Source: Chloroflexota bacterium (GTDB lineage: Bacteria > Chloroflexota > Anaerolineae > Anaerolineales > Anaerolineaceae). From it: DNA of 43,308 bases. The position numbers and the translations under genes are program-made. Location: the NCBI GenBank assembly GCA_021779955.1, contig JAJXZS010000056.1, positions 1 through 43,308 on the forward strand. The letters are read 5' to 3'. The notes beneath the pieces were generated by a model. The model had not been told where the DNA came from. It saw only the letters and a program-made list of their open reading frames with translations, and searched no databases. Shown in pieces: positions 40,030 through 43,308 of this stretch (within the stretch, counting starts at the first letter, position 1; every line of letters begins with the position of its first letter).

Positions 40030-40177
40030 TTGTCATGTTGAGCGGAGCGAAACATCTTCAAATAGCAGGATCGAACGGTGACGTTGTTGAGATGGTTGGC
40101 GCGGGAAGAGTCAGTTGAAGATGCTTCGCCCTCCCCGCTCTCGTGGTGATATTGGCCCTATAAGCTCAGCATAACAA
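40030..40177. repeat. MITE-like element with inverted ends
   Basis: The ends TTGTCATGTTGAGC (40030-40043) and GCTCAGCATAACAA (40164-40177) are imperfect inverted repeats. An inner pair CATCTTCAA (40053-40061) and TTGAAGATG (40115-40123) is perfect. The element is 148 bases with no coding capacity, and a partial copy lies at 29003-29044. Confidence 0.6.
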
Positions 40178-40378: not shown

Positions 40379-40407
40379 TTGCAATCGGACGGCATATTTG
40401 CTATTAT
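40379..40407 (+). promoter_or_regulatory. Promoter of the leader RNA and surface protein
   Basis: TTGCAA (40379-40384) and TATTAT (40402-40407) have exactly 17 bases between them. Transcription would start near 40414, giving a 5' leader of about 318 bases. Confidence 0.55.
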
Positions 40408-40496
40408 GTATGCACGGAACACCAGTTCTTTCTCTATTATCGGTACCTGTTGGAAAAGTAAGCCATCACAATTGAATATTTGTTAAAAGGATGCGT

Positions 40497-40568
40497 TGAT
40501 CCGCGTATCTGAATTGGTCGCTTAGCTCCTGAACGGTATAGAGCTGGGTACGCGGGGAGCTTAAAGCG
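40497..40568 (+). ncRNA. Candidate riboswitch-like leader RNA with competing helices
   Basis: Helix A pairs CCGCGTA (40501-40507) with TACGCGG (40549-40555) and encloses hairpin B, AGCTC (40524-40528) with GAGCT (40541-40545). A second GAGCT (40557-40561) plus AAGCG (40564-40568) can pair with CGCTTAGCTC (40519-40528), giving ten pairs with a two-base bulge. That pairing either replaces B or makes a pseudoknot through A. A terminator follows at once. Promoter, switchable fold and terminator together are the layout of a transcriptional riboswitch. I could not assign a known class. Confidence 0.5.
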
Positions 40569-40570
40569 AA

Positions 40571-40604
40571 ACCGGCCTGAACATTCAGACCGGTATTTTG
40601 TTTA
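40571..40604 (+). terminator. Terminator in the leader of the surface-protein gene
   Basis: ACCGGCCTGAA (40571-40581) pairs with TTCAGACCGGT (40584-40594) with one C-A mismatch, followed by ATTTTGTTT. It lies 128 bases before the start codon, inside the leader, so it is likely conditional. Confidence 0.75.
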
Positions 40605-40731
40605 ATGCAGATAGGGAGCCAAATGAAGAATAGTTCATCCGGGGGCATCACCAAAAAATATTATTCAGATTTGCCTTCTCTTTGTCCGATGCCCTCCCGG
40701 CATTCATAGAGTCAACATTTTTGGAGGAAAA
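40605..40731 (+). other. Leader between the conditional terminator and the surface-protein start
   Basis: Contains no clear gene. TTGGAGGAAAA directly before the ATG at 40732 is a strong ribosome binding site. A second promoter is not obvious, so expression should depend on readthrough of the terminator. Confidence 0.5.
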
Positions 40732-43308
40732 ATGAAATCAAGCACTCGTAAGTTTCTAAAGTTCGTCAACCAGGGGATGTATGTTCTCAGCATCGCCATG
40801 CTCATCAGCGGCATGCTGCTCTCCCTGGCAGCCAAGCCAGTTGCTGCCGCCACGGGCGCCATCTGGACCACCACCGGCTCCTGCGGTTCCCCGCAGAACA
40901 TCAACCACTACAATGTATATGACGTGGTCTATGTCAACTACAGCAACCTGGCCGTCAGCACCTTGATGAATTGGTCGATCACCCAAAAAGATGGGAATCC
41001 CAAGCCCATAGTTGCATCAGGTACTTACACTACAACCGACACGGGTACCGGCTGCTTTAGCGCATACACCATCCAGCCTTCCAATTCAGGGCATGAATAT
41101 TCAGTAGATATGGCCGGCAAGAACGACAACTACCAGGTCAATCCATATACGCCCCCGAATCCAGTCATCACTATTGACAAATCTGCCGCGGCAGGTACCT
41201 TCGATTCAGTCGGCGACATCATCAATTATTCTATCCTGGTCAGCAACGCAGGCAATCAGGGTCTGACCAACGTCTCTGTTACCGATCCGGGTGTAACCTC
41301 ACTCTCCTGCCCCGCGACCAGTCTTGCCGTCGGCGCAAACATGACCTGCACGGGTATTCATGTCGTCAATCAGACAGACCTGGATGCCGGATCTTACACC
41401 AACACTGCATCCGCCACGAGTGATCAGGTTGGGCCTGTTACCGATAGTGTGACAGTGCCAATGACTCAATCACCCGCGATGACGGTCGACAAAGCCGGGC
41501 CCGCAAACGGCCTCTACGCAGTCGGCGCAGCGTTGAACTACACCATCACCGTCACCAATACCGGTAACGTCACCCTTGATGGCGTCACAGTTACCGATTC
41601 GAGCGCTACCGTCGGCTCCTGTACTCCAGCCAATGGTTCTTCTCTTGCCCCAGGCGCTTCGATGAGCTGCGCTGCCAGCCATACCCTCAACCAGACAGAC
41701 ATCGATTCAGGCCAGTACCTGAACACCGCCACAGGCACGAGCGGAAAGCTTTCCGGTTCGGATTCGGTCACCGTTACGTTGCAACGCAATCCTTCGATGA
41801 GCATCGTCAAGTCCGAGGAGTCCAGCGGACCTTACATCGCGGGCCAAACGATCACCTTCTCGATCGTGGCCACCAACACCGGTAACATCACCCTTACCAA
41901 TGCGACCGTAAGTGACCCCGATGCCGTCCTTGGCAGCTGTTCACCCAGTAATCCTGCCACCCTGGCACCCGGAGGAACCATCACCTGCTCCGCCACCCAT
42001 GTTGTCTTGCAGTCCGATATGGATTCGGGATCTTATGCCAACACGGCATATGGTGACAGCAATGAAACTTCGCAAGTGAAGGATACAGAAACCATCACCT
42101 TCGGACGAGCCTACGCGCTCTCGTTCGAGAAGAAGATTGTCGGCCAGGGTCCCTATGGACTCGGCAGCACGATCAACTACTCTCTCGAATTGGAGAACAT
42201 CGGCAATTCAACGCTGACCAACGTCAGCATTTCAGACAACGCTGCCACTCTCGGCAACTGCACGCCTGCCATTCCGGTCGCCAGCCTTGCGCCTCACGGC
42301 ACCGTGGTCTGCGCAGCTTCTCATGTGGTCGATCAGACAGACATCGACCTTGGACACTTCTCCAATACGGCTACAGGCAGCAGCAACGAGACAGACCCCG
42401 TATCCGATTCACAAAATGTAACCTTCGCCCAGACGGCTGGTTTGAGCATCGATAAAGCCGTCACGGCCGGCGTATACGGTTTTGGCGATAGCATTCCTTA
42501 CACGATCACCGCCAGCAACACCGGTCAGATCACCCTGCACAATGTGAATATCAGTGATCCTTCCGCCGTGATCGACAGTTGCTCTCCAGTTCTCGGATCC
42601 AGCCTTGCACCAGGCGCCTCGATGGTCTGCAGCGCCATCCACGTGGTAAACCAGACGGATATGGATGCCGGATCTTATGAGAATACCGCAACGGCAACCA
42701 GCACCGAAGCCGGTCCGGTTCAGGATACCCAGAACGTCATGTTCGTCCAGCATCCGAACCTGTCCATCGTCAAGACGGTAAGCTCCGAGGCTCAGGCTAC
42801 CTATGCCGTTGGCGACATGCTCACCTACTCGATCGTGCTCACCAATACCGGCGACATCACCCTGCACAATGTGACCATCGCCGATCTCGCGGCCGATCTT
42901 GGCAGCTGCGCTCCCAGCGTTCCGGCTGCCAGCCTGGCCGTTGGCGCAAGCATCACCTGCTCAGCTTCTCACGCAATCACCCAGGCTGATCTGGATGCCG
43001 GCGTCTACGAGAACACCGCTGTTGGCGACAGCAACGAGACCGATCCAAAGCAGGATTCAGTGACTGTTCAACTGGTCCAGGGACCTGCAATCTCCTTCGA
43101 GAAGAAAGAAGTCTCCCAGGGACCCTACGTCGTCGATTCGATCATCACCTACAGCTTCGAACTGACCAACATTGGCAATGTCACCCTGCACAATGTGACC
43201 ATCAGCGATCCCAAGGCTACCTTTGGTACCTGCACCCCTGCCCTGCCCGTGGCTGAACTTGCACCTCTCGCCAAAGTCACCTGCTCCGCCACCCACGTGG
43301 TCACTGCT
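40732..43308 (+). CDS. Secreted DUF11-repeat surface protein, 3' truncated by the window edge
   Basis: The frame is open from 40732 to the right edge (859 codons so far). A basic start plus hydrophobic segment ending AAKPVAAA (about residue 40) is a signal peptide. A unique domain of about 100 residues follows. Then come DUF11-type beta repeats of about 105-110 residues starting near nucleotides 41158, 41470, 41788, 42109, 42432, 42751 and 43081. Each has a DK or EK opening strand, YxVGDxxxYxI, TNTGNxTL, a Cys pair and a VxQxDxDxGxYxNTA end. Such proteins form cell-surface stalks or adhesins. The anchoring end is not in view. Confidence 0.9.
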   Translation, partial: MKSSTRKFLKFVNQGMYVLSIAMLISGMLLSLAAKPVAAATGAIWTTTGSCGSPQNINHYNVYDVVYVNYSNLAVSTLMNWSITQKDGNPKPIVASGTYTTTDTGTGCFSAYTIQPSNSGHEYSVDMAGKNDNYQVNPYTPPNPVITIDKSAAAGTFDSVGDIINYSILVSNAGNQGLTNVSVTDPGVTSLSCPATSLAVGANMTCTGIHVVNQTDLDAGSYTNTASATSDQVGPVTDSVTVPMTQSPAMTVDKAGPANGLYAVGAALNYTITVTNTGNVTLDGVTVTDSSATVGSCTPANGSSLAPGASMSCAASHTLNQTDIDSGQYLNTATGTSGKLSGSDSVTVTLQRNPSMSIVKSEESSGPYIAGQTITFSIVATNTGNITLTNATVSDPDAVLGSCSPSNPATLAPGGTITCSATHVVLQSDMDSGSYANTAYGDSNETSQVKDTETITFGRAYALSFEKKIVGQGPYGLGSTINYSLELENIGNSTLTNVSISDNAATLGNCTPAIPVASLAPHGTVVCAASHVVDQTDIDLGHFSNTATGSSNETDPVSDSQNVTFAQTAGLSIDKAVTAGVYGFGDSIPYTITASNTGQITLHNVNISDPSAVIDSCSPVLGSSLAPGASMVCSAIHVVNQTDMDAGSYENTATATSTEAGPVQDTQNVMFVQHPNLSIVKTVSSEAQATYAVGDMLTYSIVLTNTGDITLHNVTIADLAADLGSCAPSVPAASLAVGASITCSASHAITQADLDAGVYENTAVGDSNETDPKQDSVTVQLVQGPAISFEKKEVSQGPYVVDSIITYSFELTNIGNVTLHNVTISDPKATFGTCTPALPVAELAPLAKVTCSATHVVTA

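What the first reader, a model, noticed from the sequence alone, without database searches (positions are those of the whole stretch)
40379..40604. Promoter, bistable or pseudoknotted RNA and terminator ahead of a giant surface protein
Two GAGCT copies compete for one AGCTC. One choice is compatible with the CCGCGTA/TACGCGG helix as a nested hairpin; the other gives a longer helix that crosses it. A terminator begins three bases downstream. This is what a transcriptional riboswitch or protein-sensing leader would look like, and I see no match to the classes I know.
Basis: partly seen in the sequence, partly recalled or inferred. Interest (0 to 1): 0.7.

Follow-up and report, generated by a model that had tools for sequence, protein, structure and literature searches.

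The report
Cyclic di-GMP riboswitch for surface protein
The stretch is a divergent copy of a known RNA sensor for the bacterial messenger cyclic di-GMP, placed so that the messenger should switch on a secreted surface protein; it is a known kind of switch whose score falls under the curated detection limits.

Summary
The structures are real, but the RNA is not a new class. Window 40480-40584 matches Rfam RF01786 (c-di-GMP-II riboswitch) over the whole model: 39.4 bits, E 5.7e-7 for the genome. It is under that cut-off (53.5) and under the sister family's, RF03169 (37.3 against 40); two of the genome's four copies pass RF03169. Of 400 genomes of the order, 150 match RF03169 at E<=0.01 and 103 pass; 0 of 14 controls match. 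CCGCGTA/TACGCGG is the class's nested stem; the conserved crossing helix is TCGCT/AGCGA. AGCTC with the first GAGCT is an extra hairpin; the second GAGCT lies in the conserved GGAGC box, and pairing it with AGCTC is not conserved (2 of 60 at 6 pairs). The terminator's 5' arm is the core ACCGG, so ligand should block termination: an ON switch. A similar overlap is found in 49 of 60 loci, this one not counted. The gene encodes a DUF7507/DUF11-repeat protein. In a family sample GGDEF genes occur in 16 of 16 genomes with the riboswitch and 1 of 17 without. Binding and switching were not tested.

The parts
40379..40407 (+). sigma-70-like promoter, TTGCAA-17-TATTAT with TG before the second hexamer
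   Evidence: consensus scan, 9 of 12 matches; not evidence of use
40480..40584 (+). c-di-GMP-II riboswitch aptamer
   Evidence: RF01786, 39.4 bits, model 1-84 of 84; RF03169, 37.3 bits; both under the curated cut-offs
40489..40490 (+). inner P1 pairs, GG with CC at 40576-40577; outer P1 (UGUU/AACA) weak
   Evidence: standard pairs at these two in 57 and 60 of 60 rows; whole P1 58.4% of cells
40493..40494 (+). P2, GC with GC at 40559-40560; the third pair of the model is U.U here
   Evidence: P2 95.0% of cells paired; mismatch marked
40501..40508 (+). nested stem 5' strand, CCGCGTAT, with 40548-40555
   Evidence: 93.0% of cells paired, both-side changes at 8 of 8 pairs
40518..40522 (+). pseudoknot 5' strand, TCGCT, with AGCGA 40565-40569; a sixth pair T40523-A40564 is possible here
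   Evidence: six pairs together 88.8% of cells, both-side changes at 4 of 6; the sixth is unpaired in 36 of 57 rows. First pair T-A 50, G-C 5, A-T 2, unpaired 3 of 60
40524..40545 (+). inserted hairpin AGCTC (40524-40528) / GAGCT (40541-40545), loop of 12
   Evidence: insert of 14 or more bases in 43 of 60 homologues; hairpin of 4 or more pairs in 39 of those 43; in 32 of 43 at most 5% of shuffles are as stable; this copy 18.5%
40548..40555 (+). nested stem 3' strand, GTACGCGG
40556..40560 (+). conserved GGAGC box; holds the start of the second GAGCT copy
   Evidence: its GAG is invariant in the 60-row alignment
40566..40574 (+). core segment GCGAAACCG
   Evidence: this 9-mer in 49 of 60 homologues, four other 9-mers in the rest; aligns with GUGCAACCG of RF01786; its contact with ligand is recalled from the crystal structure, not checked
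40571..40604 (+). intrinsic terminator; 5' arm ACCGG-C-CTGA 40571-40580, 3' arm TCAG-A-CCGGT 40585-40594, then ATTTTGTTTA
   Evidence: -12.7 kcal/mol, z -4.76, 0 of 200 shuffles as stable; 5' arm overlaps the aptamer core
40723..40727 (+). Shine-Dalgarno GGAGG of the regulated gene
   Evidence: read from the sequence
40732..43308 (+). secreted repeat protein, open at the contig end (859 codons)
   Evidence: Pfam DUF7507 8.7e-153, DUF11 1.3e-27; NCBIfam TIGR01451 8.2e-45; signal-like N-terminus, by eye and by a crude rule

Best explanation
The leader is a class II cyclic di-GMP riboswitch that acts as a transcriptional ON switch. RNA polymerase starts near 40414 (inferred from the promoter-like site) and makes an aptamer with P1, P2, the nested stem 40501-40508/40548-40555 and the pseudoknot 40518-40522/40565-40569. 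When c-di-GMP binds (inferred), ACCGG at 40571-40575 and the P1 strand after it are held in the aptamer and cannot serve as the 5' arm of the terminator at 40571-40594, so transcription continues into the DUF7507/DUF11-repeat surface protein. Without c-di-GMP the terminator forms. The AGCTC/GAGCT hairpin is a variable peripheral insert of this lineage. Shown by computation: sequence and structure match, covariation, overlap of core and terminator here and in relatives. Inferred: ligand, direction of switching, promoter use.
For: Full-length match to RF01786 at E 3.4e-7 in 401 bases and E 5.7e-7 in the genome. Four copies in the genome, two over the RF03169 cut-off. 150 of 400 genomes of the order match RF03169 at E<=0.01, 103 of 400 over the cut-off, 0 of 14 controls. 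RF01786 in 11 of 16 genomes of the genus at E<=0.01, 0 of 14 controls. Covariation on all 60 aptamers: 79.1% of cells paired against 60.9 +/- 0.8 shuffled and 32.4-42.9% when slid by 1-3 columns; 24 of 28 pairs with changes on both sides (20.7 in shuffles). Downstream complement of the core region (6 or more bases) followed by T-rich sequence in 49 of 60 loci; mean uninterrupted stem 8.97 against 5.87 in shuffles; in 39 of 60 at most 10 of 200 shuffles do as well. The window terminator arm lies in the core. GGDEF (diguanylate cyclase) domains: 5 in this genome; in a family sample 16 of 16 genomes with the riboswitch and 1 of 17 without have any. Downstream frames have a signal-like N-terminus in 46 of 54 loci by a crude rule. 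In C. difficile class II switches are described as transcriptional ON switches, with adhesins and type IV pili among their targets (PMC11477304, passages).
Against: Both scores lie under Rfam's curated cut-offs. P1 is weak (58.4% of cells paired) and the third P2 pair is U.U here. The stem rule does not count the window copy among the 49: its stem is split by a C.A mismatch, and its best uninterrupted stem was reached by 74 of 200 shuffles. At lax limits control genomes ring too: 10 of 14 at E<=10, 2 of 14 for RF03169 and 1 of 14 for RF01786 at E<=1, none over a cut-off. The promoter match is weak. GGDEF and riboswitch presence are not independent in descent (the 17 genomes without it fall in 3 genera), and one of them, G180, has 25 GGDEF matches. 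I found and made no binding or transcription data for this RNA.
Confidence: 0.9

Rival explanations
1. The aptamer fold is of class II but the ligand is another cyclic dinucleotide or related compound, because one core position differs from the canonical type (GAA at 40568-40570 where RF01786 has GCA and RF03169 has GAG).
For: Rfam keeps a sister family for a core variant of this class (RF03169). Core GCGAAACCG in 49 of 60 copies. Of 20 copies fetched from elsewhere in the phylum 11 are GAG type, 4 GAA, 3 GCA and 2 did not fit the pattern.
Against: The differing position (40569) pairs with 40518 and covaries: T-A 50, G-C 5, A-T 2, unpaired 3 of 60. The next position, where the RF03169 consensus has G, is A in 60 of 60, as in the RF01786 consensus. 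GGDEF genes track the riboswitch.
Confidence: 0.05
2. One reading: AGCTC is shared between two GAGCT copies, and the choice is the regulatory step.
For: Both pairings exist in the sequence. A plain minimum-energy fold contains the longer helix. Two of 60 homologues, this one included, can form 6 such pairs where 0.35 are expected.
Against: Not conserved: 58 of 60 homologues lack it at 6 pairs, and at 5 pairs the count is near chance (3 against 2.09). The second GAGCT lies in the class's conserved box; the loop sequence is free to vary.
Confidence: 0.03
3. An ordinary intergenic terminator with a chance resemblance to the aptamer.
For: Sub-threshold scores; modest folding z-scores.
Against: Genome-wide E 5.7e-7, sister copies over the cut-off in the same genome, covariation, 0 of 14 control genomes at E<=0.01.
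Confidence: 0.01

Closest known systems
c-di-GMP-II riboswitch, Rfam RF01786
   Same: Full-length model match; same P1, P2, nested stem and GGAG box; pseudoknot drawn from the equivalent strands; core ends AACCG; ahead of a surface protein as some class II switches of C. difficile are (PMC11477304, passages)
   Different: 14 bits under the curated cut-off; pseudoknot pair U-A in place of G-C; 24-base insert with a hairpin between the pseudoknot strand and the nested stem
c-di-GMP-II-GAG riboswitch, Rfam RF03169
   Same: Same fold; GGUCGC/GCGA pseudoknot type; two of the four copies in this genome pass its cut-off
   Different: The window copy is 2.7 bits under the cut-off; core GCGAAACCG where the model consensus reads GCGAGACCG
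Tandem c-di-GMP-II arrays, most ahead of a putative surface anchor protein gene in Paraclostridium and relatives (PMC9481103, passages)
   Same: Class and kind of target; tandem copies also occur in relatives of this genome
   Different: The window copy is single; other lineage

Membership tests
c-di-GMP-II riboswitch class (RF01786 / clan CL00127) | Covariance-model match over the whole aptamer | tested here: met
   model 1-84 of 84, E 5.7e-7 per genome
c-di-GMP-II riboswitch class (RF01786 / clan CL00127) | Score over the curated gathering cut-off of RF01786 (53.5) | tested here: not met
   39.4 bits, none at gathering in the window; 13 of 400 genomes of the order have a match that reaches it
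c-di-GMP-II riboswitch class (RF01786 / clan CL00127) | Nested stem plus crossing pseudoknot helix | tested here: met
   93.0% and 88.8% of cells paired, with compensatory changes
c-di-GMP-II riboswitch class (RF01786 / clan CL00127) | Conserved core AACCG and GGAG box | tested here: met
   which bases touch ligand is recalled, the structure paper is not held
c-di-GMP-II riboswitch class (RF01786 / clan CL00127) | Binds c-di-GMP | not testable with these tools
   needs in-line probing or calorimetry; only indirect support
c-di-GMP-II riboswitch class (RF01786 / clan CL00127) | Aptamer overlaps an expression platform (usual, not defining) | tested here: met
   terminator arm within the core here; 49 of 60 loci by a fixed rule that leaves this copy out
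c-di-GMP-II-GAG (RF03169) | Score over the gathering cut-off (40) | tested here: not met
   37.3 bits; sister copies at 41.8 and 40.2 pass
c-di-GMP-II-GAG (RF03169) | GAG in the core (GCGAGACCG); that the name refers to this triplet is my inference | tested here: not met
   window has GCGAAACCG

The most novel reading that the evidence does not exclude
The window copy belongs to a lineage-wide third core type (GAA) of the class II fold, with an extra hairpin, whose ligand selectivity has drifted from c-di-GMP. With GCA, GAA and GAG types side by side in one phylum it would be a natural series for how this pocket changes specificity.
Probability: 0.06. Interest if true: 0.6.

Novelty: new member of a known kind. 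Interest (0 to 1): 0.3.

Why it matters
It gives an unannotated leader a likely ligand and direction. It also suggests that c-di-GMP control of secreted surface proteins is common in this order, where the main Rfam model at its curated threshold finds the switch in only 13 of 400 sampled genomes and the sister model in 103 of 400. The GCA, GAA and GAG core types in one phylum offer a direct test of how the class II pocket tolerates change.

Tried and rejected
Rfam at curated thresholds found nothing in the window; the answer came from the E-value search. A weak ilvH RNA hit on the - strand (E 1.2) was dismissed as chance. A plain DNA search for another copy of the leader in the genome found only itself. 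Plain folding favours the extended AGCTCC/GGAGCT helix; tested on homologues and rejected as a conserved switch. RNAalifold on A1 drew only the nested stem, one pair beside it and P2; it cannot draw pseudoknots.

Naming the organism: a scan of genome contigs with the surface protein gave one locus, Pseudoxanthomonas sp. CF125, 32% identical in the best segment, query residues 142-858, which says nothing about kinship. I would guess an Anaerolineae-like Chloroflexota; no call shows it.

Literature: searches with Chloroflexi and Anaerolineae gave 0 papers; with Chloroflexota 2, of which PMC12452182 was seen in passages (they name the c-di-GMP-II models and an enrichment of riboswitches in Chloroflexota, but not together) and PMC12530212 in the listing only. 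PMC9943018 (passages) only names the models. PMC3764141 (passages) deals with class I. PMC11477304 and PMC9481103 were seen in passages. The variant-class papers and the class II structure paper, whose DOIs I recalled, are not held. Searches were used only to find papers.

Rows and mends: the 60 aptamers are the loci (mostly best hits), so they lean to the model. A first covariation count used 46 of the 60, chosen by eye (79.2% of cells paired); it was repeated on all 60, and only the latter is used above. The first loop test had misplaced landmarks in L021 and L023; the mended run is (hairpins 39 of 43, not 40), and its pair tally replaces that. The loop boundary in both is a fixed offset, so single bases may be misplaced. 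For one search I chose 16 family genomes with a hit from the listing and took all 17 family genomes that one search listed without one; 211 further genomes without a match were not listed and not examined. Downstream genes: 54 of 60 loci gave an open frame by a fixed rule; some picks (L011, L016, L037, L057) look doubtful.

Full report
What is there. The leader between 40379 and 40732 holds a promoter-like site (40379-40407), a compact structured RNA (40480-40584), a terminator (40571-40604) and, about 130 bases on, a gene with a good ribosome site for a secreted repeat protein (40732 to the contig end).

What it is. Rfam at its curated thresholds finds nothing in the window. With an E-value search the leader matches RF01786, the c-di-GMP-II riboswitch aptamer, from the first to the last model position: 39.4 bits against a cut-off of 53.5, E 3.4e-7 in 401 bases. 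Over the whole 2.83-Mb genome the E-value is 5.7e-7, and there are four such copies with E between 3.7e-7 and 1.3e-6 (at the limit used there, E<=10, 10 of 14 control genomes also ring, none over the cut-off). With the sister family RF03169 (c-di-GMP-II-GAG, cut-off 40) the four score 41.8, 40.2, 37.3 (this one) and 33.0 (2 of 14 controls ring at E<=1, none over the cut-off). So the window copy is under both cut-offs while two sister copies in the same genome pass one of them.

How widespread. RF01786 matches 169 of 400 genomes of the order at E<=1, 13 of 400 over the cut-off (1 of 14 controls rings at this lax limit). In the genus it matches 11 of 16 at E<=0.01 (0 of 14 controls). RF03169 matches 150 of 400 of the order at E<=0.01, 103 of 400 over the cut-off (0 of 14 controls), and 101 of 400 of the phylum at E<=0.001, 92 over the cut-off (0 of 14 controls).

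Anatomy. The pseudoknot is TCGCT 40518-40522 with AGCGA 40565-40569; with a sixth pair that is mostly absent elsewhere (unpaired in 36 of 57) 88.8% of cells pair, and 4 of 6 pairs show changes on both sides. P2 is 95.0% paired; P1 only 58.4%, carried by its two inner G-C pairs. For the whole structure 79.1% of cells pair, against 60.9 +/- 0.8 in shuffles and at most 42.9% when partners are slid. The alignment was made from model hits, so it leans to the structure, and related sequences inflate such counts.

The two GAGCT copies. The first (40541-40545) closes a hairpin with AGCTC in an insert between the pseudoknot strand and the nested stem. Inserts of at least 14 bases occur in 43 of 60 copies; 39 of these 43 fold to at least 4 pairs, the median fraction of shuffles as stable is 1%, and 32 of 43 are at or under 5%; the window copy is at 18.5%. 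The second (40557-40561) lies in the conserved GGAGC box, whose GAG is invariant in the 60. Pairing AGCTC with it is possible here and is preferred by a plain fold that cannot draw pseudoknots, but only 2 of 60 copies can form 6 such pairs and 3 of 60 can form 5 or more (0.35 and 2.09 expected by shuffling). It is not a conserved switch.

Mechanism. The terminator (-12.7 kcal/mol, z -4.76) uses ACCGG at 40571-40575 and CTGA at 40577-40580 as its 5' arm. These bases are the end of the conserved core GCGAAACCG and the 3' strand of P1, so aptamer and terminator should exclude each other and ligand should give read-through. A similar layout recurs: in 49 of 60 copies an uninterrupted complement of at least 6 bases to the 14-base core region is followed by at least 4 T in 8; the mean best stem is 8.97 against 5.87 in shuffles, and in 39 of 60 no more than 10 of 200 shuffles do as well. 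The window copy is among the 11 not counted, since a C.A mismatch splits its stem. ON switching agrees with what is reported for class II in C. difficile (PMC11477304, passages).

Target. The gene product has a signal-like N-terminus and repeats of DUF7507 (8.7e-153) and DUF11 (1.3e-27); it is cut by the contig end, so 'giant' is unproven. Over the homologous loci 46 of 54 downstream frames have a signal-like or membrane N-terminus by a crude rule. Pfam finds in some of the 54 MBG, DUF7507/DUF11, cadherin-like, SpaA-like and peptidase domains, three response-regulator and three DNA-binding domains and one sugar transferase; each listed family occurs in one to four members. This suits control of adhesion and surface by c-di-GMP, though many of the frames have no assigned domain.

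Ligand. The genome has five GGDEF domains. In 33 genomes of the family, 16 of 16 with the riboswitch have GGDEF matches (6 to 41 each), against 1 of 17 without. Within the genus the counts are 1 to 20 in the 11 with it and 1, 1, 1, 1, 4 in the 5 without. The genomes without it fall in few genera, so the nominal p-values (1.5e-8 and 0.003) overstate the case, and G180 (25 GGDEF, no riboswitch) is an exception. In the core, the position where the RF03169 consensus has G is A in 60 of 60 copies, as in RF01786; the position before it covaries with the pseudoknot strand (T-A 50, G-C 5, A-T 2, unpaired 3 of 60). Of 20 copies fetched from elsewhere in the phylum, 11 are GAG type, 4 GAA, 3 GCA and 2 did not fit the pattern. 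I therefore expect c-di-GMP, but this was not measured.

Verdict. A sub-threshold member of a known riboswitch class, with a lineage-typical insert and core variant.

Noticed in passing
window 40623-40709 (+): A 28-codon open frame with GGGAG ahead of it lies between the terminator and the surface-protein gene (read by eye); possibly a leader peptide, possibly chance.
   Followed up: no
L065 10854-11245, G261 contig C13 222853-223244: Three class II aptamers within about 390 bases ahead of a frame that looks by eye like a response regulator, lying between two similar repeat-rich surface-protein-like frames.
   Followed up: partly
L059 1343-1444 and 1500-1597 (G376 contig C274): Two aptamers about 55 bases apart, both over the RF03169 cut-off; tandem arrangement.
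   Followed up: no
L010, L023, L049 downstream of the aptamer: Three of 54 downstream frames hold a response-regulator domain, and three a DNA-binding Trans_reg_C domain (assigned to these loci by their N-termini), so some of these switches may start a regulatory cascade.
   Followed up: no
L083-L094 (other families of the phylum): GAG-type copies (11 of these 12 by pattern) of 85 to 89 bases without the long insert; by eye no terminator like that of the GAA type shows in the 30 bases printed after each, so their expression platform may differ.
   Followed up: no
window 40032-40057 (+): GTCATGTTGAGCGGAGCGAAACATCT is one of 20 dispersed matches (up to 2 mismatches) to a short repeat pattern in the genome; the reversed control pattern gives 0.
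   Followed up: partly
G180: A genome of the same family with 25 GGDEF matches but no class II riboswitch match.
   Followed up: no
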